DNA of 45,553 nt from Paraglaciecola polaris LMG 21857 (GTDB lineage Bacteria; Pseudomonadota; Gammaproteobacteria; Enterobacterales; Alteromonadaceae), in contig NZ_BAER01000111.1 in the NCBI RefSeq assembly GCF_000315055.1, positions 1 through 45,553 of the forward strand, written 5' to 3'. Made by a program: the position numbers and the translations under genes. The notes under the pieces were generated by a model. The model did no database searches. It was not told the DNA's origin and worked only from the letters and a program-made list of their open reading frames with translations. Below, piece by piece: positions 4,816 to 40,715 of this stretch. How positions within the stretch are numbered: position 1 is the stretch's first letter; the number at the start of each line of letters is the position of its first letter.

Positions 4816-4877
4816 TGTTTTGTGCCGTAAGTCCGTTCTACCCGCAATCGAAATTATCAGCTGAGTCGAGTGTTTCC

Positions 4878-5351
4878 ATGTTAAAAATATTATTTATTTG
4901 TACCCATAATCGTTGTCGCAGTATTTTATCTGAAGCGATAACTAATCACCTAGGTCAGGGCAAATTAGAAGCACGCAGCGCTGGCAGCCAGCCTGTGGGG
5001 GAAGTGCATCCTTTGTCGCTTAAGTACCTGCAAGAAGAGGGTGTTAACACCCAAGGGCTGATAAGCCAATCGTGGGATGAATTCGAAGACTTTGCTCCAG
5101 ATGTGGTGATCACTGTATGTGATAGTGCGGCAGGGGAAGCGTGCCCGTTGTGGTTTGGCGACAGTGTAAAAGTACATTGGGGATTGTCTGATCCGTCTAA
5201 GCTAACTGGCGATGAAGAACATATCGCTCAGGCGTTTCGCACAAGCATAAATGAAATTAGTCAGCGTGTGCATGCCATGCTCACTATCAAGGCTGACGCC
5301 CAGGATGCTGTGGCTCTGCGTCAAGCATTCAACCACTTGGGGGCAAAATAA
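4878..5351 (+). CDS. arsC: Arsenate reductase, LMW-phosphatase fold
   Basis: Reduces arsenate to arsenite in the cytoplasm so that the efflux pump can expel it. The phosphatase-like P-loop [10 protein letters not shown] holds Cys8-(X5)-Arg14. Two more cysteines, Cys81 and Cys89, match the spacing of the three-cysteine relay of thioredoxin-coupled ArsC. The start at 4878 gives 157 residues and places the first strand (LKILFIC) at the N-terminus, as is normal in the family. An earlier ATG at 4815, touching the arsR stop, would add 21 unlikely residues. Its stop overlaps the arsH ATG by one base, indicating tight coupling. Confidence 0.9.
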
Positions 5352-6085
5352 TGTCTGATATCGAATCACGCGTGTGCTCGACCTTACCTGACAATATTGA
5401 TGCTGGGTCGTTCGTTGTGCCGCAATTCAATCAATTTAAAACGGCGTCGTTCGTCCACAAACCACGTATTTTATTATTATATGGCTCGCTGCGGGCTCGT
5501 TCTTTTAGCCGCTTAGTAGTAGAAGAGAGTGCCCGTATACTGCAAGCCATGGGCGCTGAAACACGTATTTTCAATCCGACAGGATTACCGTTACCGGATG
5601 GTGATGACGCCGAAAATACAAAAGTAGCTGAACTACGCGAATTGATGTTGTGGTCAGAAGGCCAAGTGTGGTGCTCACCGGAACGCCATGGTTCGATGAC
5701 TGGCATACTGAAGAGCCAAATTGATTGGGTGCCGCTTTCAATTGGTGCGGTTCGCCCCACACAAGGAAAAACACTTGCCGTTATGCAGGTAAGTGGTGGA
5801 TCACAGTCCTTTAATGCGGTTAACCAGATGCGTGTATTAGGCCGTTGGATGCGTATGTTGACCATACCTAATCAATCATCTGTAGCGAAAGCCTTTATGG
5901 AGTTTGACGACAATGACTGTATGAAACCATCGCCATATTACAACCGTATTGTAGATGTGCTGGAGGAGCTAATGAAATTTACACTATTAACGCGAGATAA
6001 CGCCGATTATTTAGTTGACCGTTATTCCGAACGAGTTGAAAGCGCTGAGCAAGTGAGTCAACGCGTCAATCAACGCTCTATTTAG
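5351..6085 (+). CDS. arsH: ArsH, NADPH-dependent FMN reductase of the ars operon
   Basis: A 244-residue flavodoxin-fold protein. The phosphate-binding loop [13 protein letters not shown] (about residue 43) and the [20 protein letters not shown] stretch (about residues 105-125) are hallmarks of ArsH. ArsH proteins use NADPH and FMN to oxidise trivalent organoarsenicals to less toxic pentavalent forms and also reduce quinones or azo compounds. Its ATG overlaps the arsC stop, and acr3 follows after 13 bp, so it is an internal operon gene expressed under arsenic stress. Confidence 0.93.
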
Positions 6086-6098
6086 CAGGTATTTTAGC

Positions 6099-7124
6099 AT
6101 GGGATTATTTGAACGTTATTTATCGATTTGGGTGGCATTGAGTATTGCTGCTGGTGTGATTCTGGGTAGTTTCTTGCCTGAGTTATTTGCTGGAGTGGCC
6201 GCACTGGAATATGCGCACGTTAATGTCGTGGTAGCCGTACTGATTTGGTTGATGATCTACCCCATGATGATCCAAATCGATTTTTCATCCCTTAAAGATG
6301 TCGGTCGCAAACCGAAAGGCATCTTGCTGACACTGGCGATTAACTGGCTCATCAAACCTTTTACCATGGCTGCATTAGGCTGGTTGTTTTTTAAAGGCTT
6401 CTTTGCCGACTGGGTTGATCCGCAAACCGCAAACGAATATATCGCCGGTATGATCTTGCTCGGCGTAGCGCCGTGCACGGCTATGGTATTTGTGTGGAGT
6501 CAGCTAACCAAAGGGGATGCTAATTATACTCTGGTACAGGTCTCGGTGAATGACATCATTATGATCTTTGCTTTTGCCCCTATTAGTGCGTTATTGCTCG
6601 GCATGAGCGATATTCAGGTGCCTTGGGAAACCTTGCTAATTTCAGTGTTGTTATATGTATTGCTGCCACTGATTGCCGGGGCGCTCACGCGCTCTTGGCT
6701 TAACAAGGCAGGCGACAGTGAGGGGGATAGCAACATTCATCGTTTTGTCGCCACCCTGAAACCTTGGTCGATTATCGGCTTGCTGGCGACAGTGGGATTG
6801 TTGTTTGGCTTTCAAGCACAAACGATCCTCGACCAGCCACAGATGATCTTATTGATCGCGATACCGCTATTGATTCAAACATACGGCATTTTTGCTATTA
6901 CTTATTACGCTGCCAAGCGCTTAAGCTTGCCACATAATGTGGCAGCACCTGCCAGTATGATTGGCTCGTCCAACTTTTTTGAGTTGGCGGTGGCAGTCGC
7001 TATATCGTTATTTGGCTTACATTCAGGGGCTGCTCTTGCCACGGTCGTCGGGGTGTTGGTTGAAGTGCCAGTGATGCTGTCGTTAGTGTATTTTGCTAAT
7101 CGTACACGCCATTGGTTTGTCTGA
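6099..7124 (+). CDS. acr3: ACR3-family arsenite efflux transporter
   Basis: A 341-residue protein with about ten transmembrane helices. The conserved helix-4 cysteine lies in [15 protein letters not shown], essential for As(III) transport in ACR3 proteins, and a second conserved stretch ([11 protein letters not shown]) lies near the C-terminus. It exports arsenite made by ArsC, driven by the membrane potential or a proton gradient. It closes the ars operon. No strong plus-strand terminator follows: the hairpin at 7152-7172 has its T-tract on the other strand, so transcription may run on towards the 3' end of dapD. Confidence 0.93.
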
Positions 7125-10463: not shown

Positions 10464-11657
10464 TCAACGCAGATGCAACAGCGCATTTTTCTGGTCTATT
10501 CTGAAATCAAATTCCCGCAAAAAATTCATTCCTAATAAGCCGTCACTATGAGCAAGTTCATCTAGTGGCAATACCATCACATTAATGTTTCTCACTTTCG
10601 CCTTAGCGATTTCAAGGCTGGCGAATTGATACATGGGCGAGCGTACGGTGCCATTGGCCGTTTGTACGTTAAATTGGCCAACAAATTTGCTTGCTACCGA
10701 TTTAAACAACGCTTTAAATTTCTGCCGAGATATGGCGGTGGTTGATGCGCCGGTGTCGATCAAAAAGTGCACCTGATTGCCACTCAGACTGGTTTCAACT
10801 ACGTACTGATCGCCGTATTTTTGTAGCGGGATCTGAAAGGAATTTGTAAGACCGACTCTTTGAGGGCTGCCATTGGTTGCTTGACTTGTATCACCGTTGT
10901 CAGCATTTATTGACTCATCGATTCGTTGAATGATTTGGCGGATCTCCATCGCTTGTGGATCCTCATAGCGAATGGATGCAAGTACGTTTTCCATCAGACT
11001 TGCTTGTTGCTGGCGAGCATAAGCGGTAGCTAAGGCTAAAATCAACTCACGATCAGTGGGACTCACCTGCAATAGTGGCTCAACGAATTGTGCCAGTATG
11101 TCCCATGAATTCGCTTGTTTCAGCTCGGTGATGGTTTCATTGGTTAAGCGCGCAATGGTATTTTGCACTTGTGTTTGTTGCGCTTTACTCAAGGGTAAAC
11201 TCAGCATGCCATGATAATGAATAATGGCGTCACTGAGTAAGTGTGACTGGGCGATGTATTGGGCTTCCAAGAGCAAAAACTCGACATCTTGCGGGTATTG
11301 GCGCAAATAGAGTGGAAAAAACGCCTCAAGTTTGGCGTATTCCTGCCCCGTAAGCCAGCGACGAGTTTGGGCTAAATAGGCTTGCCGTCGGTCTGGCTTA
11401 AAACGCTTTGTGCCCGAGGCCGATGTTTCGTTTTCGATGTTTGCCTTATTTTCATAGGGCGGGTTCGACGTGTTTGATTGGGGCTCTTGGTTAGCGGGCT
11501 GCATCGGAGCTTGCTTAAAAGGTGCTAGGTTAGTTGTTTCAAATACCGGTTTATGTACCGCGACTGGACGCAGCTCATGAAAACTCAGGTACTGATATAC
11601 ATTGATGCTCAATGAGGCAAAAAATGCCAGGACCAGTGCGCTATTGAGTTTGCTCAT
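10464..11657 (-). CDS. Membrane-anchored retropepsin-like aspartic protease
   Basis: A 397-residue protein with an N-terminal signal anchor (about residues 6-26), a low-complexity linker, then helical TPR-like repeats at about 90-245. The C-terminal domain at about 270-397 is a clan AA aspartic protease: the active-site motif FLIDTGAS, then the GLLGMNFL motif near the end. Retropepsin-like domains of this kind work as dimers, and in bacteria they occur as periplasmic proteins with mostly unknown substrates. It follows the thioesterase gene by 13 bp and is probably the last gene of that minus-strand operon. Confidence 0.85.
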   Translation of the reverse strand: MSKLNSALVLAFFASLSINVYQYLSFHELRPVAVHKPVFETTNLAPFKQAPMQPANQEPQSNTSNPPYENKANIENETSASGTKRFKPDRRQAYLAQTRRWLTGQEYAKLEAFFPLYLRQYPQDVEFLLLEAQYIAQSHLLSDAIIHYHGMLSLPLSKAQQTQVQNTIARLTNETITELKQANSWDILAQFVEPLLQVSPTDRELILALATAYARQQQASLMENVLASIRYEDPQAMEIRQIIQRIDESINADNGDTSQATNGSPQRVGLTNSFQIPLQKYGDQYVVETSLSGNQVHFLIDTGASTTAISRQKFKALFKSVASKFVGQFNVQTANGTVRSPMYQFASLEIAKAKVRNINVMVLPLDELAHSDGLLGMNFLREFDFRIDQKNALLHLR

Positions 11658-13787: not shown

Positions 13788-14408
13788 ATGAATACCTTAT
13801 CCCCCACAAAATCACCTATTGGTGAAATCCATTGCAAACCCCATCGTTATCAAGATGTGATGACGTTATTTGATGCTGCCTTTAGTCAAAGTGAAAACAC
13901 CCGCTTGATCAAAGGGCCTGGGGAGCCAGAATACGTGCCTGCTGGGAATGACTGCGCTTATCATCAAGTGATTTTTGCCCATGGATATTTCGCTAGCGCG
14001 CTTCATGAAATCGCCCATTGGTGTATTGCCGGGCCACAGCGGCGGTTGCTCAATGATTACGGGTATTGGTACTGCCCAGACGGACGTAACGAAACACAGC
14101 AGATGCAATTTGAACAGGTCGAAGTTAAACCCCAGGCCATTGAGTGGGCATTTTCTGTGGCAGCCAATAAAACATTTAGGGTCAGCACTGATAACCTCAA
14201 TGGGGCGCAGCCAGATAAGCACACTTTCACCTTAAATGTACATAAACAGGTGATGCGTTACTTACAAGACGGTTTTCCTGCTCGGGCCACAATATTTATC
14301 AAAACGTTAGGCATCTTCTACGGCACCGGTGACCTGACGCCTGGGCATTTTTTGCAGCCAAAGAGACGGGGTCATTGGTCAACGAACGCATTCGAGGAGG
14401 GAGAGTGA
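13788..14408 (+). CDS. epmC: Elongation factor P hydroxylase
   Basis: A 206-residue YfcM/EpmC protein. It hydroxylates the beta-lysylated lysine of elongation factor P, the last step of that modification. The metal-binding motif ALHEIAHWCIAGPQRRLL (about residues 70-87) followed by DYGYWYCPDGR is the family signature. The gene order epmC, ATP-NAD kinase-like, yfcL, mnmC, fabB resembles the E. coli yfcM/yfcL/mnmC/fabB region. The stop overlaps the GTG of the next gene by four bases (GTGA), showing translational coupling. Confidence 0.92.
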   Translation: MNTLSPTKSPIGEIHCKPHRYQDVMTLFDAAFSQSENTRLIKGPGEPEYVPAGNDCAYHQVIFAHGYFASALHEIAHWCIAGPQRRLLNDYGYWYCPDGRNETQQMQFEQVEVKPQAIEWAFSVAANKTFRVSTDNLNGAQPDKHTFTLNVHKQVMRYLQDGFPARATIFIKTLGIFYGTGDLTPGHFLQPKRRGHWSTNAFEEGE

Positions 14409-15547
14409 CGGATAAAGCACGGTTTAAACTTGGCCTTATTATTAATCCATTTGCAGGAATCGGTGGCAGTGTGGCGTTAAAAGGCAGTGATGGTGCTGAT
14501 ACCCGAACGCAAGCGCTAGCACTTGGCGCCCAGAAGCTGGCTAATACTCGCACCCGTTTGGCCCTAGAGGAACTGCTACCATTTAAATCTCAACTGCATA
14601 TTTTTACTGCAGCAGGTGAAATGGGGGAAACGCTGGCCGCTGAGTTAGGTTTTGATTTCACTGTGGTTTATCGCTCGTTGAGTGAGCAAAGCGAAGCGAT
14701 TGATACTGAGCGTTGTGCGGCAGAAGTAAAACAACGGAATGTTGATTTATTATTGTTCGCCGGAGGTGATGGTACTGCACGTAACATCTGCCACGTTATT
14801 GCCGATACCCTACCTGTGCTGGGTGTGCCTGCGGGCTGTAAAATTCATTCGGGCGTATACGCTGTTACGCCACAAGCCGCAGGGCGAGTGGTTAGTATGT
14901 TGATTCAAGGGCAAATTGTTACGCTGCAAGATGCTGACGTAATGGACATTGATGAAGAGCTTTTTCGCCAAGGCAGAGTGAACGCGCGTCAGTACGGTGA
15001 AATGCGTGTACCGAGCGAGTTGCGTTATATTCAGGCCGTCAAAATGGGCGGTAAAGAGTCTGATGAATTGGTGCTTGCGGATATCGCAGCGCACGTTATT
15101 GAGTTCATGGAAGCGCATCCTCAGCGGCTTTTTGTTATGGGCTCAGGCTCTACGGTTGATTTTATTATGCAGGAATTGGGCTTAGCCAATACTTTATTAG
15201 GGGTTGATGTCATTCAACATGGCAGTGTGCTTGCCAGCGATGTGACTGCTCAAGCCTTATTAGCCTATACCGCCAATACTCAGGTGACGTTGATCATCAC
15301 ACTGATTGGCGGTCAGGGGCATATTTTCGGACGAGGTAATCAGCAGTTGAGCCCTCAAGTGCTGCGGCAAATAGGTCGTGAGAACTTCTTGGTGGTCGCG
15401 ACAAAAAGTAAGTTACAAGCCCTGAACGATAAACCTTTAATAGCGGATACCGGCGATATTGCACTGGACGCCATGCTGTCTGGTTTAATTAGTGTCACCA
15501 CGGGTTATAAAGACCAAGTGCTATACCCGATTGCTCAATTCGAATAA
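14405..15547 (+). CDS. ATP-NAD kinase family protein
   Basis: A 380-residue protein of the diacylglycerol/NAD kinase-like fold. Near the N-terminus is LGLIINPFAG, and the nucleotide-binding motif FAGGDGTARNI lies at about residue 120. GGQGHIFGRGNQQLS near the C-terminus is typical of the COG3199-type ATP-NAD kinase-like group. The true substrate is not known; the housekeeping NAD kinase NadK is a different protein. I chose the GTG at 14405 because a perfect AGGAGG lies at 14395-14400 and it overlaps the epmC stop. A TTG at 14375 lacks such a site. Confidence 0.85.
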   Translation: MTDKARFKLGLIINPFAGIGGSVALKGSDGADTRTQALALGAQKLANTRTRLALEELLPFKSQLHIFTAAGEMGETLAAELGFDFTVVYRSLSEQSEAIDTERCAAEVKQRNVDLLLFAGGDGTARNICHVIADTLPVLGVPAGCKIHSGVYAVTPQAAGRVVSMLIQGQIVTLQDADVMDIDEELFRQGRVNARQYGEMRVPSELRYIQAVKMGGKESDELVLADIAAHVIEFMEAHPQRLFVMGSGSTVDFIMQELGLANTLLGVDVIQHGSVLASDVTAQALLAYTANTQVTLIITLIGGQGHIFGRGNQQLSPQVLRQIGRENFLVVATKSKLQALNDKPLIADTGDIALDAMLSGLISVTTGYKDQVLYPIAQFE

Positions 15548-19562: not shown

Positions 19563-20483
19563 TTAAAAGTAAGTTTCTTCTAATTTAATAAAGACTTGGC
19601 TTATTCCAAGTTGTACGTCATCAATAAAGTGATGCAGCTTATCTTGAATAAGTGTTTGCGGATTAGCTGCCATTAACATCTTCTCCACGACTTCGAGCTC
19701 ATGGGATACAGCTGCAAAGTTTGGCAGGTTTTGTACACATCCCTTAACCTCTTGCAAAGTGTGCAGTAATGAACGGGGAAATCGCTCTTCTAGCAATAAG
19801 AATTTCAATACGTCGGGACGACGGATCCTGAGCCGTACTTCTCGGCGATACATCTGATAAGCCGTTAATGATTTAAGCACACTCATCCACTGTAGATTTT
19901 CAAACGCCGACTGTTCTGTTTCCGTTTCTGGTAGTAAAGTGGCTGAGCGCACGTCTATGATCCGCGTGGTCATATCGGCTCTTTCTAAGTTGCGCCCAAT
20001 TTTTAAGAAATTATAGCCTTCATCATGGGTCATGGTACCCGCTAAAATGCCGGTAATCTTCTGTACTGACTCAATAACTTCAGTCAGAAAATCGTATCGC
20101 GAGCGTCTAAACAACGCTTTTTGATGATTTTCATCACCATAAATATACAGTTCGTTGATTTGCTCCCATACCTCTCTAGGAATGATCTCCCGGATAGTTC
20201 TGGCGTTCTCCCGCGCAAACTCTAAGGAGCTGACAATGGATGACGGGTTATTAGGTCCTACAAGTAAAAAGTTTAAAACGCTGTGTTCGTCCGCCATGTC
20301 GTAGTGGGCATAAAAGGTTGTTCTGTCAGATACTATGTCGATTATGGGCTCCCAACCCAGCACAATGCTTTTGGGTAAATCGAGCAGTAGATTCGAGTTG
20401 ACGTTAATCAGTCTAGCGGTATTTTCAGCACGCTCTAGATAACGCCCTAACCAACATAAATTATTTGCGACTCGAGATAACAT
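19563..20483 (-). CDS. Alpha-E domain protein of the Anbu cluster
   Basis: A 306-residue, almost fully helical protein of the alpha-E (DUF403) family. It opens with the typical MLSRVANNLCWLGRYLERAE and carries the conserved REIIPREVWEQIN and FLKIGRNLERADMTTRIID stretches. Alpha-E proteins are found next to circularly permuted ATP-grasp enzymes and transglutaminase-fold proteins and are thought to work with the ligase; no reaction is proven. Its ATG lies two bases past the ATP-grasp stop, with its ribosome site (GGAGGG) inside the end of that gene. The two products are therefore made together. Confidence 0.9.
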   Translation of the reverse strand: MLSRVANNLCWLGRYLERAENTARLINVNSNLLLDLPKSIVLGWEPIIDIVSDRTTFYAHYDMADEHSVLNFLLVGPNNPSSIVSSLEFARENARTIREIIPREVWEQINELYIYGDENHQKALFRRSRYDFLTEVIESVQKITGILAGTMTHDEGYNFLKIGRNLERADMTTRIIDVRSATLLPETETEQSAFENLQWMSVLKSLTAYQMYRREVRLRIRRPDVLKFLLLEERFPRSLLHTLQEVKGCVQNLPNFAAVSHELEVVEKMLMAANPQTLIQDKLHHFIDDVQLGISQVFIKLEETYF

Positions 20484-20485
20484 AA

Positions 20486-21940
20486 TTAGCTTCCCTCCAT
20501 ATCAACAATCCAAGTGTCTTTACTGCCACCACCCTGTGATGAGTTGACCACAGTCGAACCCTTCACTAATGCGACGCGAGTGAGACCACCCATAGTGACA
20601 CACACGTCTTTACTACTGAGTATAAAGGGGCGCAAATCTAAATGCCTGCCTTCTACTTCATTGCCAACCATAGTCGGGGCAGTCGACAGCAGCAACATAG
20701 GCTGGGCCACGTAGTTTCTAGGATCATCTTCTATCAGTTTGCGGAACTCATCATGCTCCTTTGGCGTGGCATGGGGGCCAATCAACATACCGTAACCCCC
20801 TGATTCATTGGCGGGTTTGACGACCATTTTTTCGATATTGGCCAGTACATATGCTTTTTCGTCAGGATTCACACATCGATAGGTAGGTACATTTGACAGC
20901 AAAGGCTCTTCATCAAGGTAATATTCGATAATCTGTGGCACATAGCTATATACCACTTTATCGTCTGCCACCCCTGAACCCGGTGCATTAGCCAGCGCTA
21001 CTTTGCCCGCTTTCCATGCGCGCATGAGGCCAGGCACACCGAGGGTCGACTCGGTATTAAATACTTCAGGATCGATAAAAGCATCGTCGATACGGCGATA
21101 GATAACGTCTACCTGACTGAGACCGTTTATGGTGCGCATATACACGCAGTTATCTTCATCTACGACTAAGTCATCACCCACCACTAACTCGGCACCCATC
21201 TGCTGGGCTAAGTAGGCATGTTCAAAATATGCAGAGTTATAAGTGCCGGGTGTCAAAACCACTATTTCAGGCTCTGGAATATCCCGTGGGGAAAGCGCGG
21301 CTAACATGTCGTATAAGTCCGACGGGTAATTATCTACCGGTAAAATGTCATATTGCCTGAACATTTCTGGGAATACGCGTTTCATCACTTGCCTATTTTC
21401 AAGCATGTATGACACGCCAGATGGGACGCGTAGGTTGTCTTCCAGCACGTAAACAGTACCATTTTGGTCCCGCACTAAATCTGAGCCACATATATGTGCC
21501 CAAATCCCTAGTGGTGGGCTGAAGCCTTTACACTGGGGTAAAAAGTTTTTTGAATGAGTTAACAAATCTTTGGGAAAAATACCGTCCTGAATGATTTTTT
21601 GCTCGTTGTAGAGGTCATCGATAAACATGTTCAATGCTTTGACCCGTTGTTTTAGGCCTTTTTCAATCTGTTGCCACTCTTTGAGTTCGATAAGGCGAGG
21701 AACGATGTCAAACGGCCAAGCTCTGTCGATTGATCCTTCTTCGTCGTTGTATACACGAAACGTTATCCCCATCACTTTTATGGCTGAATCGGCAGCGGCT
21801 TTATATTCTTGCAGTTCTGCATCGGAAAGGTCTTGTATGAAATCACACAAGTCTGTTGCATAAGTCCTCGGCTCCCCAGGACGTTTAACTAACTCATCGT
21901 GAAATGGGCCTGTGTCGTATTTATTCCAATTAATCGGCAT
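20486..21940 (-). CDS. Circularly permuted ATP-grasp ligase of the Anbu cluster
   Basis: A 484-residue protein of the circularly permuted ATP-grasp type 2 family (DUF404/DUF407). Key stretches are LEDNLRVPSGVSYMLENR (about residues 165-185), the nucleotide-binding VVKPANESGGYGMLIGPH (about 373-390), and the Gly/Ser-rich SSQGGGSKDTW at the C-terminus. ATP-grasp enzymes join a carboxylate to an amine or thiol via an acyl-phosphate. Members of this group are predicted amide ligases, possibly forming small peptides. It leads the two-gene minus-strand operon with the alpha-E protein and is divergent from the Anbu protease gene. The substrate is unknown. Confidence 0.92.
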   Translation of the reverse strand: MPINWNKYDTGPFHDELVKRPGEPRTYATDLCDFIQDLSDAELQEYKAAADSAIKVMGITFRVYNDEEGSIDRAWPFDIVPRLIELKEWQQIEKGLKQRVKALNMFIDDLYNEQKIIQDGIFPKDLLTHSKNFLPQCKGFSPPLGIWAHICGSDLVRDQNGTVYVLEDNLRVPSGVSYMLENRQVMKRVFPEMFRQYDILPVDNYPSDLYDMLAALSPRDIPEPEIVVLTPGTYNSAYFEHAYLAQQMGAELVVGDDLVVDEDNCVYMRTINGLSQVDVIYRRIDDAFIDPEVFNTESTLGVPGLMRAWKAGKVALANAPGSGVADDKVVYSYVPQIIEYYLDEEPLLSNVPTYRCVNPDEKAYVLANIEKMVVKPANESGGYGMLIGPHATPKEHDEFRKLIEDDPRNYVAQPMLLLSTAPTMVGNEVEGRHLDLRPFILSSKDVCVTMGGLTRVALVKGSTVVNSSQGGGSKDTWIVDMEGS

Positions 21941-22098
21941 ACTGAGATCTCCATCTTGCTAGTTGCATATTTAGTATACGGATTCAGTTCGTTTTTGATA
22001 CAAAAAGTCTTGACGTTTATGCTGGGTTCTATTCAAATCATAGGCAATTAGTCGATCGTTATAGCTACATCTTTGGTAGACCGTTTGAGTAAAATTAA

Positions 22099-22842
22099 AT
22101 GACATATTGTTTAGCAGTAAGTGTGGACGACGGGCTCGTATTTGCGTCAGATTCGCGGACCAACGCCGGGGTGGATTATGTCGCTACCTATAGTAAAATG
22201 AGTCGTTTTGTTTTTGAAAACAATCGTGTTTTGGTGTTATTGACCTCCGGTAGTCTCGCGACATCACAAGCGGTGGTGAACGGTATTAAGCGGGATTTAA
22301 ACGATCCTAAAGCAGACTTCGATATCCGTCAGGGACAAGATTTACACGAGGTCGCTCAGTACATAGGTAAGTTGAGCCAAAATGAGCAGCGCTTACATGC
22401 CCAAGCAATTGAAAAGTCCAACGCTAATAATGAATCGAGTTTTATTCTCGGTGGGCAAATAGTCGGACAAGCCTGTGAAATATTTCTTATTTACCCACAA
22501 GGTAATTTTATTTCCGCTTCAGCAGAAACCCCATATTTGCAGATAGGGGAAAGCAAATACGGTAAGCCTATTTTGGATCGAATCATTAGCTCAGACTTGT
22601 CACTTTCAGACGCAGCCCGCTGTGCGGTTATCTCCCTCGACTCGACCATGAGAAGTAACGTGTCAGTTGGCCCCCCGCTCGAATTGGCATTACATAAACA
22701 AGGTGTTTTTCAGGCTCCTGAACACTTAGTTTTAGAGGGAAATAGCGCAGACTACCAATATCTGCAAGCTTATTGGAACGAGGGAATGAAGTCAGCGTTT
22801 AATCAGCTACCCAAGTTAGACTGGGATAAATACGACCTTTAA
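22099..22842 (+). CDS. Anbu, proteasome/HslV-like peptidase
   Basis: A 247-residue Ntn-hydrolase of the proteasome superfamily. After removal of Met1 the chain begins with Thr, the expected N-terminal nucleophile (M-TYCLAVSVDDG). The following FASDSRTNAG matches the Asp region of the active site, and KMSRFVFENNRVLVLLTSGS provides the lysine segment. Anbu proteins assemble into open-ring oligomers; native substrates are not known. Its companions here (ATP-grasp, alpha-E, transglutaminase fold) are the classic Anbu neighbours. Its stop overlaps the stop of the convergent metallopeptidase gene by four bases, leaving no room for a terminator. Confidence 0.92.
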   Translation: MTYCLAVSVDDGLVFASDSRTNAGVDYVATYSKMSRFVFENNRVLVLLTSGSLATSQAVVNGIKRDLNDPKADFDIRQGQDLHEVAQYIGKLSQNEQRLHAQAIEKSNANNESSFILGGQIVGQACEIFLIYPQGNFISASAETPYLQIGESKYGKPILDRIISSDLSLSDAARCAVISLDSTMRSNVSVGPPLELALHKQGVFQAPEHLVLEGNSADYQYLQAYWNEGMKSAFNQLPKLDWDKYDL

Positions 22843-23921
22843 TCCTGTTGGTCAGCGATGACTTCATGTACAAACCGAAGCTTGTCTAACGCGGTAATGG
22901 AAATTACGAAGGGGTAGGCATCGTCCATTCCCATGCTGCGATTTAAGCCGTTTAACGCCCTTGTTAGCTGACACCAGTTATCAAATATGTGCGTAAAATT
23001 AGTGGCAATATAAGCCTGGTCGTGCAATTTCTCTGCGGGAATAGGGCTAACAATTTTATTTCCGGCCAGCGAGAAATCAAAATCGTTGGCGGTTTCCAGT
23101 GTGTCTATCATATGCAGATAATGCGCCCAGGTTTCTGCCCAGTCTTCCCAAGGGTGCATACTGGCGTACGCGCTGATCCACACGGTTTGCCAATTTTGGT
23201 TTGGTCCATTTTTGTAATAGTCTTGCATGGACTCAACGTAACCTAATCGTTCATCACCGAACAGTTTTCTAAACTCAAGAATTTTGTCACTTTTGGCGAT
23301 CAATTTGTCCCAATAGTAATGACCTGACTCGTGCCTAAAATGGCCGACTAAGGTACGATAACGCTCCCCCATTTTTTCACGCATATCGATACGGGCACTG
23401 TGATCAGCTTCACTTAAATTGATTGTGATGAGTCCACTGGCATGGCCTGTGGTCACAAAGTTCTTTACGGTGAGTTCATTACCATATTGATCTTCAATTT
23501 CATCTCTGAGGAAAGAGAAGCTAAGTCCCGACGGGTTACTCGATGTCTTACCCTTGATAGGCAGGCCCAGCGTCATCAGGATATACAGTAAACGGCGTTT
23601 ACCTTGCTCCAACCTGAACCACAATGTCATGTTTTCAGGGTCGTCTAGATTCGGAATGATGTCGTTAAGGCGACAAGACAGACAATAATCATGCTCATCG
23701 TCATAACTTACCATCCAATTACAGGCATTATATTGGGAATAGTTTTTACATTTACGGTACAGCTTGCCATTGCATGATGCTTGTAAATTTCCGTACTGGT
23801 TGGTGGTAAAAGCACTTAATTTTACTTCATCGGGGATAAAGCCAAGCATAAGGCCACAGGCGACACATTTAGAATTGGCAAAATGTAATGTGTTAGCGCA
23901 TTGACAGGTAAATGTTTTCAA
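22839..23921 (-). CDS. Zinc-ribbon metallopeptidase (Peptidase_Mx-like)
   Basis: A predicted zinc peptidase of 360 residues. The N-terminal 90 residues hold several Cys pairs (CQC, CVAC, a CNGK/CKNY group, CLSC) that look like one or two zinc ribbons. The catalytic motif FRHESGHYYWD gives HExxH-type ligands, here His-Glu-Ser-Gly-His, with a downstream EDWAETWAHYLH as a likely third ligand. The start is probably TTG at 23921, because GGAG lies 7 bp upstream and the product then begins with KTFTCQC, as expected. An ATG at 23945 would add 8 residues and lacks a ribosome site. It converges on Anbu with a four-base overlap. Confidence 0.82.
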   Translation of the reverse strand: MKTFTCQCANTLHFANSKCVACGLMLGFIPDEVKLSAFTTNQYGNLQASCNGKLYRKCKNYSQYNACNWMVSYDDEHDYCLSCRLNDIIPNLDDPENMTLWFRLEQGKRRLLYILMTLGLPIKGKTSSNPSGLSFSFLRDEIEDQYGNELTVKNFVTTGHASGLITINLSEADHSARIDMREKMGERYRTLVGHFRHESGHYYWDKLIAKSDKILEFRKLFGDERLGYVESMQDYYKNGPNQNWQTVWISAYASMHPWEDWAETWAHYLHMIDTLETANDFDFSLAGNKIVSPIPAEKLHDQAYIATNFTHIFDNWCQLTRALNGLNRSMGMDDAYPFVISITALDKLRFVHEVIADQQD

Positions 23922-24291
23922 ACGGACGCTCCAAGTTTTCGCCATAGGCAATGTTGACGATATTGGATTGTAACAAGCAAATGGATTTATCCTAATAATA
24001 CTTGCTGTAATTAAATTATTATTCAGCCAGTGACAAGACCCCATTTCAATGTGCAAATCTAACCTTGGCTCCTCATGTTATGAAACACGGGGTATTTGTT
24101 AGCATATGGTTAATATTGCTTTATCAAGTTGTTGTTATGCAATAAATCAATCCGCTTACTAAAAATTAGCATTGCACTTAGTGTATTAACTTGGTTACCT
24201 TGCGCCTCCGGCATAGCTTCCAGTCAGGGATCTGAATAAGCTGCGCCATTAATTTTCTGCCTTTCTCATGGGTTTTTATTCTGGAGTGACT

Positions 24292-25482
24292 ATGGATCGC
24301 CGCGCCGCTACGTCCGTTATTTTTGCTGGGTTCTTCTTGCTCGGTATGGTTTTCATCTTGTGGGGAATTCTGTTGCCTGATTTAGCCAAGAGCTTGGCTA
24401 TGAACGAAGTGGTAAGTGGTGCTTTTTTCACTTTAATATCAGTGGGTATGATCCTAGGGGCTATTTTAGGTGGCAAATACGCGCAAAAATTTGATTTTAT
24501 GTCGCTATTTGCCGTTCTGCTAGTGAGCGTTACTCTATTATTACTCGCTATTTCATTGGTGCAACATTGGCTTTGGTTGTTGATAGGCGCGCTGGTATTA
24601 GGTGTTTTCAGCTCAAGCTTGTTTACCATCGGCCATACTGTGATTGCCCGCTTACATGCCGAACGTCGCTCAACCATGATGGGCTTTATGGATTTCATGT
24701 TTAGCTTAGGTACCTTGGCTGCGCCTTTTTATGTATCTGGTTTGTACTTGGTGGAGCATGATTGGCGCTGGCCGTTACGTATTTTAGCCATCGGGCTATT
24801 GATGCTTGCTGCGTATACATGGCGAGTGGCCCATCAAGGTAAGAAACTTGTGGCACCGGAAGAGGCGAGTAAAAATCGTAAGAGTTTGGCTTATGGTGAC
24901 ATTATTCGCCGCCCGGTCTTTATTTTTTTAGCCTTAGCTGCGTTTGGTTACGGTATGGTTGAATTCGGTAACGCCAACTGGTTCGTTAGTTATGCGCAAA
25001 ATGGCCATGGTTATAGTGGTGAGCAAGCACGCTTGGTTTTTGCCTTTTTCACTGCAGGTATGGTGGTAAGTCGTTTGGTTTTTGCTTTATTACTACGTTG
25101 GTTAACCAGTCACCGCTTAATGTTGATCCTAGCAACGATCATGCTCGTTGGCAGTTTTATGATTAAATTAGCGGTTGATCCTGTCGCCATGTCCTGGGGT
25201 AACTTTATGCTTGGCTTAGGTTTAGGCGGCTTATTCCCCTTGATGTTGTCCGCAGCAATGGATGTGGACAGTGACAAAGGCCCAATTATTTCGGGTCTGT
25301 GTGTTATTGGTTCATCCATTGGCGTGCAGGTGGCTTCATTCAGTACAGGATTATGGGCGCATTTTGCACCGCTCACCACGGCATTTTGGGTGATCCCGAT
25401 AGGTGGCGCATGGTTGTGGGTAATGGCATGGGGTTACAGTCGATTCGTTAAACGCCACATTGCCACCCAGGCTCATCCCTGA
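24292..25482 (+). CDS. Major facilitator superfamily transporter
   Basis: A 396-residue protein with about 12 transmembrane helices. Its N-half includes the loop GGKYAQKFDF after helix 2, and the C-half repeats the same topology (GLGLGGLFPLMLSAAMD). Charged and aromatic residues suggest a sugar- or organic-acid-type MFS carrier, but the substrate cannot be read. The ATG at 24292 has GGAG five bases upstream. An ATG at 24268 would add eight residues and has a poorer site. The gene stands between the Anbu metallopeptidase and a dead gene, whose 3' end overlaps this stop on the other strand by 10 bp. Confidence 0.85.
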   Translation: MDRRAATSVIFAGFFLLGMVFILWGILLPDLAKSLAMNEVVSGAFFTLISVGMILGAILGGKYAQKFDFMSLFAVLLVSVTLLLLAISLVQHWLWLLIGALVLGVFSSSLFTIGHTVIARLHAERRSTMMGFMDFMFSLGTLAAPFYVSGLYLVEHDWRWPLRILAIGLLMLAAYTWRVAHQGKKLVAPEEASKNRKSLAYGDIIRRPVFIFLALAAFGYGMVEFGNANWFVSYAQNGHGYSGEQARLVFAFFTAGMVVSRLVFALLLRWLTSHRLMLILATIMLVGSFMIKLAVDPVAMSWGNFMLGLGLGGLFPLMLSAAMDVDSDKGPIISGLCVIGSSIGVQVASFSTGLWAHFAPLTTAFWVIPIGGAWLWVMAWGYSRFVKRHIATQAHP

Positions 25483-25876
25483 GCCAACGGGCTTAGGGCG
25501 TCGTTTATATTATCAGCGACATACATTCGGTTATCCTCAAATAGGATATGACCATCTTCGTGCCAAACGCTGGGTCAGTTGAGGGTTAAAGCAACATTTT
25601 CGATTAATTCACTGTTCAGGGTGGCAAAGAAAGCGGTGGCTTGAGCGTTCTCCTCGTTATAAGGGGTGTTAATGTTGGCGGTTTGGTTAATATCGTTATT
25701 AATAGCCACTAGCCCATCATCTGTTTTGCCATTTTCTTTGAGTAATTTTAAGCCAAAGGTCAGCTCGCTGATGCCCGATTGACTTAAGCCAAGTGTGTAA
25801 CCTTATGCATCTGCTAATGTTTGCGTGCGTAAATCGCGTAAAAACACAGCCGGATTCAAATATGACTCTTGTTTGC
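25473..25876 (-). pseudogene. Degraded gene remnant with two in-frame stops
   Basis: One minus-strand frame reads like protein for about 134 codons but is broken by TAA at 25803-25805 and TGA at 25575-25577. The readable pieces are ESYLNPAVFLRDLRTQTLAD, then GYTLGLSQSGISELTFGL to ENVALTLN, then PSVWHEDGHILFEDNRMY to the final stop at 25473-25475. The TGA could be a mutated TGG (Trp). The frame is constant, so the damage is by point mutation. No start codon or signal peptide remains, so the 5' part is lost. The last 10 bases overlap the MFS stop. I do not recognise the family. Confidence 0.6.
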
Positions 25877-25979
25877 CCACGACTACAAAGACAATACTGA
25901 AACACGATATCCGTGTTAGTTTTAAGCGAAGCACACCTGTATGGTAGTAGTTTAACTCGGCTAACTTGAGAGTAATTTC

Positions 25980-27299
25980 ATGATAAAAAGCAGTGCTGAT
26001 TTTTTTAGTCGTGTCATGCAGCGATGGCTCCCTGACCCTTTCATCATTGCGATTATTTTGACCGCCATTGTATTTATGTGTGGATTGTTTATTGAACGAC
26101 AATCAGTGACCGACATGGCAAATCATTGGGGTAATGGATTTTGGGCGCTATTATCATTTTCCATGCAAATGGTGCTTATTCTCGTTCTTGGCAGTATTTT
26201 AGCGATGAGTGTGGCGGTAAAAAAAGGGCTTGTTTGGGTGGCTAAACTCGCCGCTACGCCCACCCAGGCAATCTTACTCGTAACGTTAGTCTCTATGTTG
26301 GCATCTTGGATTAACTGGGGTTTTGGATTAGTGGTTGGTGCGTTAGTCGCTCGGGAAGTCGCCACTGTCGTTAAGGGCGGGCATTTTCCGTTGTTAATTG
26401 CTTCTGCTTACAGCGGCATGCTGATTTGGCACTCTGGCTTGTCAGGATCCATACCGCTAAAGATTGCGTCACAGGACAGTGATGCGTTAGGTCAATTGCT
26501 TGCCGGTCAGACTATCCCCATGACGGAAACTATTTTCGCTTGGCAGAATTTAGTTATTGTTGCTGCGCTCGTGATCACCGTTCCTATTTTGAATATATTG
26601 ATGCTACCCGATAAACACAAGCGGGTGAGTTTTCAGGTTAAACACAAAAATGTGCCTTCCATCGATAAGCGCGGTCTTACCCCTGCGGAAAAATTAGAGC
26701 ACAGTCCCTTTATTAATTATTTACTTGTGATGCTTGGACTGGTGTTTTTATGGCAATACTTCATCCAAGGCAATGGACTGAGCTTGAACACTATTAACTT
26801 GTGCTTACTACTATTCGGACTGGCGTTACATGTTAGTCCTCATAATTTCTTAAACGCCGCGAAAGAAGCGATTGGCTATAGCAGCGGCATTATTCTTCAG
26901 TTTCCTATCTATGCCGGTGTTATGGGAATGATGGTTGGTTCTGGACTTGCCACTTCGATGTCACAGTGGTTTGTTGAAATATCCAGTGCCCAGAGCTTTC
27001 CCGTATACACTTTTATCAGTGCCGGGATAGTGAATTTTTTTGTTCCTTCTGGTGGAGGGCAATGGGCCGTTCAAGCACCCATAGTGCTTCCTGCCGCCAC
27101 TGAGCTGGGTGTGTCCATTAATCACGCTGCAATGGCGGTAGCGTGGGGGGACGCATGGACCAATATGATTCAGCCTTTTTGGGCGTTACCCTTATTAGCC
27201 ATCGCAGGGTTAAGCTTACGTCAGATCATGGGTTATTGTGCCGTCATTTTAATCTGGTCAGGTGTATTAATCAGCAGCTTGATTTATTTTCTTTATTAA
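25980..27299 (+). CDS. AtoE-family short-chain fatty acid transporter
   Basis: A 439-residue membrane protein with about 11-12 helices. SRVMQRWLPDPFIIAIILT at the N-terminus and FFVPSGGGQWAVQAPIVLPA near residue 350 are hallmarks of the AtoE family. E. coli AtoE takes up short-chain fatty acids such as acetoacetate or butyrate with the Ato degradation enzymes. No ato genes are nearby here. Instead it sits inside the Anbu neighbourhood, between the dead gene and the transglutaminase gene. The start overlaps no upstream gene and lies about 100 bp from the remnant. Confidence 0.88.
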   Translation: MIKSSADFFSRVMQRWLPDPFIIAIILTAIVFMCGLFIERQSVTDMANHWGNGFWALLSFSMQMVLILVLGSILAMSVAVKKGLVWVAKLAATPTQAILLVTLVSMLASWINWGFGLVVGALVAREVATVVKGGHFPLLIASAYSGMLIWHSGLSGSIPLKIASQDSDALGQLLAGQTIPMTETIFAWQNLVIVAALVITVPILNILMLPDKHKRVSFQVKHKNVPSIDKRGLTPAEKLEHSPFINYLLVMLGLVFLWQYFIQGNGLSLNTINLCLLLFGLALHVSPHNFLNAAKEAIGYSSGIILQFPIYAGVMGMMVGSGLATSMSQWFVEISSAQSFPVYTFISAGIVNFFVPSGGGQWAVQAPIVLPAATELGVSINHAAMAVAWGDAWTNMIQPFWALPLLAIAGLSLRQIMGYCAVILIWSGVLISSLIYFLY

Positions 27300-27546
27300 A
27301 GAACACCATCGCCCTTAATGTATTTTCATCGAAAAATCACTACCTCACAGCATCTGTTTTATTGCAGCTATGACGCTGGTGGGCCATCTACGCCAAGCAT
27401 TTTTCGAAAATACCCTAAGCCTTTTTGGATGGACTTTTTGGCCGTTAGCCGGACGCGCAATATAGCCGGCTAGGTTAACGCCATAAACATGCCTATATAC
27501 CGAAACTTTTGGGCTGTGGTTTGTCGGGAGTGCCTTCATTACCCGC

Positions 27547-28389
27547 CTATTGCTTTTCTATTGTTAAGTTAGTGACCAGTCGAGATGTTGCACTGCCTCG
27601 TATGCCACCAGAAACAGGCATAGTGTTTTCAGCAATCGCGCTGGAAGCGACCGAAAAATGCGTATTTCCGGTTAATATTCCATGGCTAGGATCAAAACCT
27701 AACCAACCTGTACCGGGTATAAAGACTTCTACCCAAGCATGTAATTCATAGATTGGCTTTTCCATATCAAAATAGAAATAACCGCTGACAAAACGTGCAG
27801 CAATCCCATAATGACGTAGTAGGTTAACTTGCATCCATGACAAATCACGACAAGAGCCTTTTTTTATTTTAAAGGTCTGATCGGGTGATAGCGGTGGGCC
27901 ATCTTCGCGATATTCTACGTTGAAATCCTGATGAATTTGCGAGGTCAGGTTGGTTAAAAAAGCAATGGTATTAAAGTGTGATGTGTTGAGTATTGCCTCT
28001 GCATACTCGACTAATTCCTCAGTGAGAGGGGATTTTTGTAAAGCAGCAAACAGTATTTGATATTGATGATCTGAATAGGTGAAGGGGATACGGTTAAAGG
28101 CATCCGGGTGAATAATAAAGTTAAACGGGTTATAAGCTTTGTTTTGCACATGGCTTTCTACCTCAATGGTAAGACTGTTTGTTAGTTCTCCAAACCAGCA
28201 AAAGTCGATCACATTATGTTCCTCGTCTTCGATCACACTATGCCCTTCTGGTTCGGACTTTAAGGCTATTGAAAAGTGTGTGACGTCAATGTAGGACGTT
28301 TGCTTCGGGCGAAATCGCAAGTAATGGGGTTCTAAAAAGACTTTGTCATCAAATATATATGTCGTCTCATGGATTATCTTAAAATTCAT
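27547..28389 (-). CDS. Transglutaminase-like protein of the Anbu cluster
   Basis: A 280-residue protein with the N-terminal beta domain typical of bacterial transglutaminase-like proteins (MNFKIIHETTYIFDDKVFLE). The papain-like core has the catalytic triad in order: Cys in KKGSCRDLSWMQ (about residue 170), His in YELHAWVEVF (about 210) and Asp in GWLGFDPSHG (about 225). It could hydrolyse or form isopeptide or peptide bonds. The ATG at 28389 has GGAG six bases upstream; a longer start at 28434 is unlikely. Such proteins are regular companions of Anbu, ATP-grasp and alpha-E genes, though here it is about 5 kb away from them. Confidence 0.9.
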   Translation of the reverse strand: MNFKIIHETTYIFDDKVFLEPHYLRFRPKQTSYIDVTHFSIALKSEPEGHSVIEDEEHNVIDFCWFGELTNSLTIEVESHVQNKAYNPFNFIIHPDAFNRIPFTYSDHQYQILFAALQKSPLTEELVEYAEAILNTSHFNTIAFLTNLTSQIHQDFNVEYREDGPPLSPDQTFKIKKGSCRDLSWMQVNLLRHYGIAARFVSGYFYFDMEKPIYELHAWVEVFIPGTGWLGFDPSHGILTGNTHFSVASSAIAENTMPVSGGIRGSATSRLVTNLTIEKQ

Positions 28390-39071: not shown

Positions 39072-39824
39072 ATGCAGTCAGTTAAGCAGCAGGTCAGTGA
39101 GCAAGAATGGAAAACCAGAGTCGACTTAGCGGCTGCTTATCGTATGGTTGCACACTACGGTTGGGATGATTTGGTTTTTACCCATATATCAGCTCGTGTG
39201 CCGGGTCCTGAACATCATTTTCTGATAAATCCTTACGGCATGATGTTTGATGAAGTGACAGCCTCAAGTCTGGTTAAGGTTGACTTGCAAGGCAATAAGG
39301 TTATGACGTCAGATTACGACATTAATCCGGCTGGCTTTGTTATTCACAGTGCGGTGCATGAAGCCCGAGATGATGCCCAATGTGTTATGCATTTGCACAC
39401 CACAGCAGGTATTGCGGTGTCCACCCAGAAAGGGGGCCTATTGGCGTTAAGCCAGCAGTCTCTGCTTGCTTTGTCATCCTTGTCATACCACGATTACGAA
39501 GGGATCGCTTTGAATCCCGATGAGAAAAAACGTTTGGTCGCTGATTTAGGTACAACCAATTTTATGATCCTACGTAATCATGGCTTGTTGACGTGTGCAG
39601 ATACGATTGCAGATGCGTTTTTAGGTATGTTTATAATGCAGCGTTCATGCGAGATACAACTGCAAGCCCAAGCATCAGGACAGGCGCTAATACCGATTTC
39701 AGAACAGATTTTAGCCGGTATTAAAGCTCAAGCAAAACAGGTGACTCGTTCAGCGGGTGGGGCGTTAGCTTGGCCGGGTATTTTACGTAAACTTGATCGG
39801 TCTAATCCAGGTTACGATCAATAA
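39072..39824 (+). CDS. Class II aldolase/adducin-family protein
   Basis: A 250-residue protein of the class II aldolase/adducin fold. The zinc-ligand pattern is present: a Glu in SAVHEAR (about residue 95), HLHT (about 112-115) and a third His in RNHGLLTC (about 178). YGWDDLVFTHISARVPG at the N-terminus is typical of the group. Related enzymes cleave or epimerise sugar phosphates such as fuculose-1-phosphate or ribulose-5-phosphate; the substrate here is unknown. Its stop overlaps the ATG of the alpha/beta hydrolase by one base, so the two form an operon divergent from the Crp/Fnr gene. Confidence 0.9.
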   Translation: MQSVKQQVSEQEWKTRVDLAAAYRMVAHYGWDDLVFTHISARVPGPEHHFLINPYGMMFDEVTASSLVKVDLQGNKVMTSDYDINPAGFVIHSAVHEARDDAQCVMHLHTTAGIAVSTQKGGLLALSQQSLLALSSLSYHDYEGIALNPDEKKRLVADLGTTNFMILRNHGLLTCADTIADAFLGMFIMQRSCEIQLQAQASGQALIPISEQILAGIKAQAKQVTRSAGGALAWPGILRKLDRSNPGYDQ

Positions 39825-40715
39825 TGAGCTGCTTTCCAAGTCTTGAGCAGTACCAAAAAAGCGCGAGCTATTGCCAAATAGGTAAGCACCAAATCGCCTA
39901 TTGGACTGCTCAAGACGCTAGCGCCTTGGATAAAAATGCGCTCTGGTTGGTGATGATCCATGGATTCCCCAGTGCGGCTTGGGATTGGCACAATCAGTGG
40001 AAGACGTTACGCAAAGACTATCGTTTGCTCAGCATGGATTTACTGGGTTTAGGCCTATCGGACAAACCGCATAAACATAATTATAGTGTGTTAGAGCAAG
40101 CGGATATAGTCGAGGGCTTATTGGCTCACTTAGGCGTGAAAAAAGGTCATATTCTGTGCCATGATTATGGTGATTCAGTTGCCCAAGAGTTGTTAACGCG
40201 GCATGTTGATAAACACACTCAATTCGCTATCTTGAGTGTGTTACTTGAACGGCGGATTGTTTGCGGATCATCATCGTCCCCTGTTTACCCAGAAACTGCT
40301 TAAAAGTCTAATCGGGCCCTTACTTGCTCGCTTGATGAGTCAAAGTAGTTTACAGGAAAGTTTCCGTAAAATTTTTGGACCTCACAGTCAACCCGTTGCC
40401 TCACAGGTGGATATTTTATTCGCCTTGTTAGAGCACAATAGGGGTAAACGCGTGTTGCCAAGTTTATTGGGTTACATAGACGAACGTAAAATACAGTCTT
40501 CGCGTTGGTTAACCGCTATGCAAGGTACTGACGTTGCCCAGTGTTTTATTAATGGTATACACGACCCCATATCAGGCCAGCACATGCTGACGCAATTTGA
40601 GAAAGTTCTGCCGCAGGCCACGACCCACGCATTAGATGTAGGTCACTACCCGCAACTTGAGGCTCCTCAAAAGGTGACTGAGCTATATCAACGGTTTTTA
40701 GCAAGCGTTGATTAA
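39824..40715 (+). pseudogene. Frameshifted MEST-like alpha/beta hydrolase
   Basis: Two overlapping frames together make one full hydrolase of about 296 residues. The first (39824-40303) carries the oxyanion-hole HGFPSAAWDW and the nucleophile region CHDYGDSVAQELL. The second (from about 40236 to 40715) carries VCYLNGGLFADHHRPLFTQK, the catalytic-acid segment INGIHDPISG and the catalytic His in DVGHYPQLEAP. The join falls in a GTGTG tract at 40236-40240, where a 2-bp loss would explain the shift. Related MEST-type proteins read ...SVCFLNGGLF across the join. Unless it is a sequencing error or a recoding site, the gene is inactive. Confidence 0.75.

What the first reader, a model, noticed from the sequence alone, without database searches (positions are those of the whole stretch)
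19563..28389. Anbu proteasome-like system with ligase, alpha-E, transglutaminase and an extra metallopeptidase
The window shows all classic Anbu neighbours: the N-terminal Thr protease, a circularly permuted ATP-grasp, an alpha-E protein and a transglutaminase-fold protein. Known comparative genomics links these families, but no substrate or pathway is proven. I infer a cycle in which the ligase and alpha-E protein build an amide- or peptide-linked product and the peptidases and transglutaminase act on it. The promoter region 21941-22098 faces the two halves of the system away from each other, allowing joint control.
Basis: partly seen in the sequence, partly recalled or inferred. Interest (0 to 1): 0.72.

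Follow-up and report, generated by a model that had tools for sequence, protein, structure and literature searches.

The report
Anbu ligase-peptidase cluster with metallopeptidase partner
This marine bacterium carries the known but unexplained Anbu gene cluster (a small proteasome-like protein plus a bond-making enzyme), and comparison of many genomes suggests that the extra zinc peptidase beside it is a genuine partner that can stand where other bacteria have a transglutaminase-like protein, which hints at what the cluster does.

Summary
The window has alpha-E (19563-20483), a circularly permuted ATP-grasp (20486-21940), Anbu (22099-22842), a zinc-ribbon Peptidase_Mx (22839-23945) and a transglutaminase-fold protein (27547-28389). 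The first four are contiguous; the fifth lies 3.6 kb away behind two transporter genes. The four-gene Anbu system is published, without a known substrate. What I add concerns the metallopeptidase. In 185 gammaproteobacterial genomes, all 25 with Peptidase_Mx also have alpha-E and ATP-grasp (55 of 185 do; p 5e-16), and in 17 of 25 it lies at the system locus, often as ATPgrasp-alphaE-Mx or tail to tail with Anbu. In that sample a locus-linked Mx goes with absence of the system-type transglutaminase (13 of 17, against 3 of 30 genomes with alpha-E but no Mx; p 7e-6; split made after seeing the data). This suggests that Mx can take the transglutaminase's place and that both are hydrolases. It is not a rule: this genome has both, and so do 5 of 7 linked loci in a wider phylum sample. 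Alpha-E is an internal duplication with an 'ER' motif in each half (profile E 5e-20). The make-and-break cycle stays inferred; no substrate is known.

The parts
19563..20483 (-). Alpha-E protein (PF04168), 306 aa; internal tandem duplication with an ER motif in each half
20486..21940 (-). Circularly permuted ATP-grasp (CP_ATPgrasp_2, PF14403), 484 aa; solved relative 3n6x (E 6.8e-157)
21941..22098 (.). 158-bp divergent intergenic region between ATP-grasp and Anbu; one weak sigma70-like match (21995-22023), no sigma54-like site found
22099..22842 (+). Anbu, proteasome beta-like Ntn hydrolase, 247 aa; Thr1, Asp17, Lys32 (mature numbering) present; Anbu-1-like S1 pocket
22839..23945 (-). Peptidase_Mx (PF15887) with N-terminal zinc ribbon (PF10005), 368 aa from the chosen start; HExxH plus distal Glu; tail to tail with Anbu
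27547..28389 (-). Transglutaminase-fold protein (Bact_transglu_N + Transglut_core), 280 aa from the chosen start; Cys-His-Asp present; 3.6 kb from the rest

Best explanation
A make-and-break amide-bond module of the Anbu type. The circularly permuted ATP-grasp, found in the same genomes as alpha-E, uses ATP to form an amide or peptide bond on a small molecule or protein (ATP turnover is published for a homologue; bond and substrate are inferred). Alpha-E, an internally duplicated all-helical protein with an ER motif in each half and in some genomes fused to the ligase, is its partner or acceptor platform (inferred). Hydrolases reverse or trim the product: Anbu, plus a second one, which is the transglutaminase-fold cysteine enzyme in many lineages and the zinc metallopeptidase Mx in others, this one included. 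Because locus-linked Mx in Gammaproteobacteria goes with absence of the transglutaminase, I read the transglutaminase-fold protein as a hydrolase rather than a cross-linker. The window keeps both. By analogy with P. putida and B. cenocepacia the module probably serves nitrogen limitation (not shown here).
For: Same 185 gammaproteobacterial genomes (family labels up to f163 seen): ATP-grasp and alpha-E in the identical 55; Mx 25 of 25 within them (p 5e-16), transglutaminase 40 of 40, Anbu 45 of 48. Phylum sample: Mx in 29 of 200, 28 of them with alpha-E (112 of 200; p 2.5e-7; a few genomes are in both samples). Synteny (40 regions): ATPgrasp-alphaE-Mx runs in 9 genomes, two (G053, G171) without an Anbu match; the window's layout in 7 genomes of other families and in 14 Alteromonadaceae-type loci. 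System transglutaminase missing in 13 of 17 genomes with linked Mx, 3 of 30 without Mx (p 6.6e-6). Mx HExxH and distal Glu invariant in 51 of 51. Alpha-E halves align at 99.3% probability, E 4.7e-20, against at most 0.6% in 20 shuffles. Alpha-E and ATP-grasp share long frames of about 830-1000 aa in several genomes. Published, passages read: NtrC-dependent cluster in B. cenocepacia (PMC5491218); nitrogen-limitation response in P. putida (PMC7801951, PMC3325844); Pi release (PMC6376114).
Against: No activity or substrate is shown for any member except ATP turnover; Anbu was inactive on the peptides tried (PMC5666114, PMC6376114), and no specific interactions of the Yersinia operon proteins were detected (PMC6376114). 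Replacement is not strict: the window and 11 of 25 Mx genomes (the window's among them) have a system transglutaminase, and of 7 system-linked Mx loci in the phylum sample 5 (G207, G227, G271, G318, G337) carry a transglutaminase at the same place (transglutaminase was not searched genome-wide there). In 50 Anbu-positive genomes the contrast (10 of 20 with Mx, 26 of 30 without; p 0.009) vanishes without the 15 Alteromonadaceae-type ones (4 of 5 against 26 of 30, p 0.56). The linked/unlinked split was made after seeing the data; 4 of 8 unlinked Mx genes are near contig ends or on short contigs (p 1.4e-4 if counted as linked). MtfA, a control zinc peptidase, also shows an excess with alpha-E (33 of 74, p 5e-4). 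No sigma54-like site in the gap. In P. putida the Anbu gene PP_2685 itself changed only 1.12, 4.81 and 1.45-fold in the three strains of PMC7801951, while PP_2686-2688 rose 11- to 37-fold.
Confidence: 0.42

Rival explanations
1. Protein-tagging and degradation system: the ligase attaches a peptide tag to proteins, and Anbu, perhaps with Mx, degrades or de-tags them, like a minimal ubiquitin/Pup-proteasome pathway.
For: Anbu is a proteasome homologue with the catalytic residues in place; Pseudomonas Anbu binds epoxomicin and MG132 at Thr1 (PMC5666114, section 13); tagging was proposed before (as told in PMC6376114).
Against: No AAA+ domain among the seven proteins scanned (short ORFs under 120 aa were not examined for a tag); Mx with the ligase/alpha-E pair occurs without an Anbu match in G053, G155 and G171.
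Confidence: 0.2
2. Small-peptide metabolite synthesis: the ligase and alpha-E make a nitrogen-rich peptide or polyamine conjugate (as glutathionylspermidine synthetase does) that is stored and later cut by the peptidases.
For: The closest solved relative of the ligase is annotated as a putative glutathionylspermidine synthase (3n6x); regulation beside urea transport genes in P. putida and B. cenocepacia; association with urea-metabolism domains in marine metagenomes (PMC3597751).
Against: The 3n6x name is putative; no product is known; a multimeric proteasome-like enzyme is an odd tool for small conjugates. It overlaps with the best explanation and differs in the substrate.
Confidence: 0.3
3. 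Mx and the transglutaminase are neighbours without a functional link; co-occurrence reflects genome size and shared ancestry.
For: MtfA, a control peptidase, also shows an excess with alpha-E (33 of 74); 8 of 25 class-sample Mx genomes and 8 of 15 phylum-sample Mx genes looked at have Mx away from the system; one Mx genome (G263) has no alpha-E match; no correction for phylogeny was made.
Against: 25 of 25 against MtfA's 33 of 74; 17 of 25 within 10 kb of the system, where about 0.7% per genome is a rough chance figure for 3 Mb; tight gene runs in several families; G263's Mx belongs to a separate divergent clade (100/100).
Confidence: 0.1

Closest known systems
Anbu four-gene operon (ATP-grasp, alpha-E, transglutaminase, Anbu), e.g. 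the Yersinia bercovieri and Pseudomonas operons
   Same: All four families are present with conserved catalytic residues; ATP-grasp and alpha-E are adjacent as usual.
   Different: Split into divergent halves; the transglutaminase is 3.6 kb away; a Peptidase_Mx lies tail to tail with Anbu. No word beginning with 'metallo' occurs in the main text of the two Anbu structure papers.
RloABC (Pseudomonas aeruginosa) and RimK/RimB
   Same: An ATP-grasp protein paired with a peptidase, plus a transglutaminase domain in RloB. Deleting rloB or rloC rescues growth of the triple rloA protease mutant under hypoosmotic stress and partly its other defects (PMC12239564, passages): make-and-break logic.
   Different: Another ATP-grasp protein, a retropepsin instead of Anbu or Mx, an inactive membrane-bound transglutaminase. 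Works like, not a member.
Glutathionylspermidine synthetase/amidase
   Same: A ligase coupled with an amidase that reverses it (recalled, not from a call).
   Different: A single bifunctional protein with a known substrate (recalled); no Anbu, alpha-E or Mx.

Membership tests
Anbu (Anbu-1 type) | N-terminal catalytic Thr directly after Met, no propeptide; Asp17 and Lys32/33 | tested here: met
   T2, D18, K33 in 29 of 29 aligned Anbu, window included
Anbu (Anbu-1 type) | Anbu-1 S1 pocket (T20, F30, T48, L52, S55), not the basic Anbu-2 pocket | tested here: met
   Window has T20, Y30, T48, L52, S55, compared with PMC5666114 section 13; position 30 is Y in 18 of 29 and F in 10 of 29
Anbu (Anbu-1 type) | Open split-ring assembly through a C-terminal helix | not testable with these tools
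   Needs structure work; the profile matches solved Anbu chains
Anbu four-gene operon | All four families in the genome | tested here: met
Anbu four-gene operon | Four genes in one operon in conserved order | tested here: not met
   Divergent halves; transglutaminase separated by two transporter genes
Anbu four-gene operon | NtrC/sigma54 control as reported in P. putida and B. cenocepacia | tested here: inconclusive
   No TGGCAC-N5-TTGC site with up to 2 mismatches in 21941-22098; NtrC sites were not scanned
Peptidase_Mx (PF15887) | HExxH zinc motif with distal Glu; N-terminal zinc ribbon | tested here: met
   Family matches; HExxH and Glu284 in 51 of 51. That Glu284 binds zinc, and catalysis, are inferred
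Bacterial transglutaminase-like protein of the system | Cys-His-Asp triad | tested here: met
   C183, H220, D236 of the aligned stretch; Cys 22 of 22, His 21 of 22, Asp 22 of 22
CP_ATPgrasp_2 | Full-length family match and solved relative | tested here: met
   PF14403 positions 1-374 of 374; 3n6x over residues 12-479

The most novel reading that the evidence does not exclude
The Anbu system exists in interchangeable forms. In one, a transglutaminase-fold cysteine enzyme is the second hydrolase; in another, a zinc-ribbon gluzincin-like metallopeptidase (Mx) takes its place in the ATPgrasp-alphaE run, sometimes without any Anbu. That would make the transglutaminase-fold protein a peptidase of a shared product, and the ligase/alpha-E pair, not Anbu, the core of the system, with alpha-E a two-repeat protein whose paired ER motifs form one pseudo-symmetric site.
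Probability: 0.3. Interest if true: 0.65.

Novelty: new variant of a known kind. Interest (0 to 1): 0.48.

Why it matters
Anbu was identified in 2008 (as told in PMC5666114), and the papers I saw show no substrate for it. If a metallopeptidase can stand in for the transglutaminase, the two should act on the same kind of bond, which narrows the chemistry and gives a simple genetic test: does loss of the ligase rescue loss of the peptidases, as loss of rloC does in the Rlo system? It also suggests that the core is the ligase plus alpha-E, and that in many species a further partner was not part of the published Anbu assays that I saw.

Tried and rejected
Mx adjacency as a quirk of Alteromonadaceae: the first survey (80 Anbu loci) found Mx only in L001-L015 (14 titled Alteromonas, Paraglaciecola or Alteromonadaceae, and the unnamed gammaproteobacterial MAG L006, which groups with them). 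The Mx-centred surveys showed it in many other families, so rejected. The first profile pass was blurred by fused proteins and redone with trimmed domains.

Mx as a partner of Anbu itself: rejected for the class sample (p = 1).

The two transporters as system members: the fatty acid transporter shows no tie; the MFS gene was found near the cluster only in L001 and L002 of the 80 loci (single-sequence search).

Structure: the alpha-E model is good (pLDDT 93.4), but Foldseek gave no significant match in the PDB (best E 0.07). The Mx model is mediocre (pLDDT 69.7, 14 close sequences); its top hit 4l7a, a putative zinc-binding metallopeptidase, is not significant (E 0.53).

Recurrent neighbours of unlinked Mx: none convincing. 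Conserved operator in the divergent gap: none seen. The metallopeptidase link did not turn up in paper searches (listings) or in the passages read, but Iyer 2009 and Valas and Bourne 2008 are not held, so it may already be in print.

Full report
What is there. The window, whose Anbu is 86% identical to that of Paraglaciecola sp. 20A4, holds five genes of the Anbu type: alpha-E 19563-20483 and ATP-grasp 20486-21940 on the minus strand, Anbu 22099-22842 on the plus strand, Peptidase_Mx 22839-23945 and a transglutaminase-fold protein 27547-28389 on the minus strand. Starts of the last two are my choice. Anbu keeps Thr1, Asp17 and Lys32 and an Anbu-1-like S1 pocket. The ATP-grasp matches the solved 3n6x over residues 12-479 of 484. 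Mx keeps HExxH and a distal Glu, invariant in 51 of 51 aligned sequences, and the transglutaminase keeps Cys-His-Asp. Two transporter genes lie between Mx and the transglutaminase; I do not count them in.

What is already known. The association of Anbu with ATP-grasp, alpha-E and transglutaminase is published and discussed in PMC5666114 (passages and section 13) and PMC6376114 (passages). There, Anbu showed no peptidase activity on the substrates tried, the ATP-grasp released phosphate from ATP, and no specific interactions among the operon proteins were detected. In P. putida, PP_2685-2688 are likely under NtrB/NtrC; PP_2686-2688 rose 11- to 37-fold under nitrogen limitation, while the Anbu gene PP_2685 changed 1.12, 4.81 and 1.45-fold in the three strains (PMC7801951, passages); another study lists PP2685 at 11.1 and 4.0 (PMC3325844, passage). 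In B. cenocepacia a cluster with DUF403, DUF404/407 and transglutaminase-like proteins is NtrC-dependent (PMC5491218, passages; no proteasome is named there). Marine metagenome correlations tie these domains to urea metabolism (PMC3597751, passages). So the composition without Mx is not new.

The metallopeptidase is a partner. I searched one set of 185 gammaproteobacterial genomes for each family. ATP-grasp and alpha-E occur in the same 55. Mx is in 25, all within those 55 (p 5e-16); Bact_transglu_N in 40, all within; Anbu in 48, 45 within. A control zinc peptidase, MtfA, is in 74, of which 33 are within (p 5e-4), so genome size or lifestyle gives some excess, but far from 25 of 25. In 200 genomes of the phylum, Mx is in 29 and alpha-E in 112; 28 of the 29 overlap (p 2.5e-7). 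The two samples share a few genomes. The exception, G263, belongs to a divergent Mx clade of four (with G025, G171b, G227b; support 100/100), none of them at the locus in the regions fetched. No correction for phylogeny was made, but the class set is spread over families (labels up to f163 seen).

Where it sits. In 17 of the 25 class genomes Mx lies within 10 kb of alpha-E, ATP-grasp or Anbu (rough chance 0.7% per genome). Regions fetched around 40 Mx genes (25 of the class sample, 15 of the phylum sample) show recurring layouts: ATPgrasp-alphaE-Mx runs (G010, G033, G044, G053, G079, G093, G140, G171, G361); Anbu tail to tail with Mx and divergent from ATPgrasp-alphaE (G055, G081, G124, G127, G132, G156, G278), which is the layout of the window and of the 14 Alteromonadaceae-type loci with both flanks (L001-L015 less L007); and Mx next to large transglutaminases and a fused ATPgrasp-alphaE in G207, G271 and G318. 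Of the 15 phylum-sample genes, 7 lie near system genes and 8 do not. G053, G155 and G171 have no Anbu match. In the Mx tree the window groups with Alteromonadaceae, G278, G124 and G127 (99/98).

It can replace the transglutaminase. With a profile of system transglutaminases (cut at 200 bits), the transglutaminase is in 11 of 25 Mx genomes and 27 of 30 alpha-E+ genomes without Mx (p 3.4e-4; with PF08379 13 of 25 against 27 of 30, p 0.002). Divided by locus linkage, after seeing the data, it is in 4 of 17 linked, 7 of 8 unlinked and 27 of 30 Mx-absent genomes (linked against absent p 6.6e-6; with PF08379 5 of 17, p 3.5e-5; 1.4e-4 if four Mx genes near contig ends or on short contigs count as linked; 2.3e-6 without the window's genome). 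Against this: of the 7 linked phylum-sample loci, 5 (G207, G227, G271, G318, G337) have a transglutaminase at the same place; and in 50 of the genomes behind the 80 Anbu loci the contrast, 10 of 20 with Mx against 26 of 30 without (p 0.009), lies in the Alteromonadaceae-type genomes (6 of 15 have one); the rest give 4 of 5 against 26 of 30 (p 0.56), where Mx was not within the fetched Anbu flanks. The window and two other Paraglaciecola keep both near each other. I read this as overlapping function in part of the lineages, so that the transglutaminase-fold protein acts as a hydrolase; this is inference.

Alpha-E. The AlphaFold model is confident and all-helical, with no significant PDB match by Foldseek. 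The two halves of the family alignment match each other at 99.3% probability, E 4.7e-20 over 138 columns, against at most 0.6% in 20 column shuffles and 0.4% for the reversed half. Both halves carry the motif GRYLER or GRNLER at aligned places (window residues 13-18 and 163-168), so alpha-E is a tandem duplication. I made no paper search for this point. I could not measure whether the two motifs face each other.

How it most likely works. Shown: gene content, co-occurrence, synteny, conserved residues; published: ATP turnover and nitrogen control in relatives. Inferred: the ligase with alpha-E makes an amide-linked product; Anbu and the transglutaminase-fold enzyme or Mx break it; nitrogen limitation is the occasion. 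The closest working analogue is RloABC, where loss of the ATP-grasp RloC or of RloB rescues growth of the protease mutants (PMC12239564, passages).

Regulation. The divergent 158-bp gap is real and the layout recurs, but its sequence is not conserved (9 sequences, mean column identity 46%), no sigma54-like site was found in it, and promoter-like matches in the region are below the shuffles, so joint control is possible but unsupported.

Verdict. A real, mostly known system. The added value is evidence that Peptidase_Mx is a fifth partner that in part of the Gammaproteobacteria takes the transglutaminase's place, and that alpha-E is a duplication. Whether the founding comparative paper already noted the metallopeptidase I could not check.

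Noticed in passing
window 19563-20483: Alpha-E is an internal tandem duplication with an ER motif in each half (profile comparison of halves E 4.7e-20).
   Followed up: yes
window 10464-11657: A retropepsin-like aspartic protease (PF13975, 3.8e-19), about 8 kb from the cluster; the Rlo system uses this class of protease.
   Followed up: no
window 4815-7124: Three adjacent genes with LMWPc, FMN_red and SBF domains, looking like an arsenic resistance operon (that reading is recalled).
   Followed up: no
window 39824-40715: An alpha/beta hydrolase seems split over two overlapping frames; the second ORF has no Pfam match. Left as it is.
   Followed up: no
window 13788-15547: EpmC gene overlapping an NAD-kinase-like gene.
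   Followed up: no
G422 (genome of L077), contig C4 473503-475106: Mx followed about 100 bp on by a weaker transglutaminase match of 122 bits.
   Followed up: no
G022 and G170: Half-length Anbu matches (profile 1-126) in genomes without an alpha-E match: remnants or another homologue.
   Followed up: no
G263, G025, G171, G227: A divergent Mx clade, none of the four at the Anbu locus; G263 has no alpha-E match, so this clade may have another role.
   Followed up: partly
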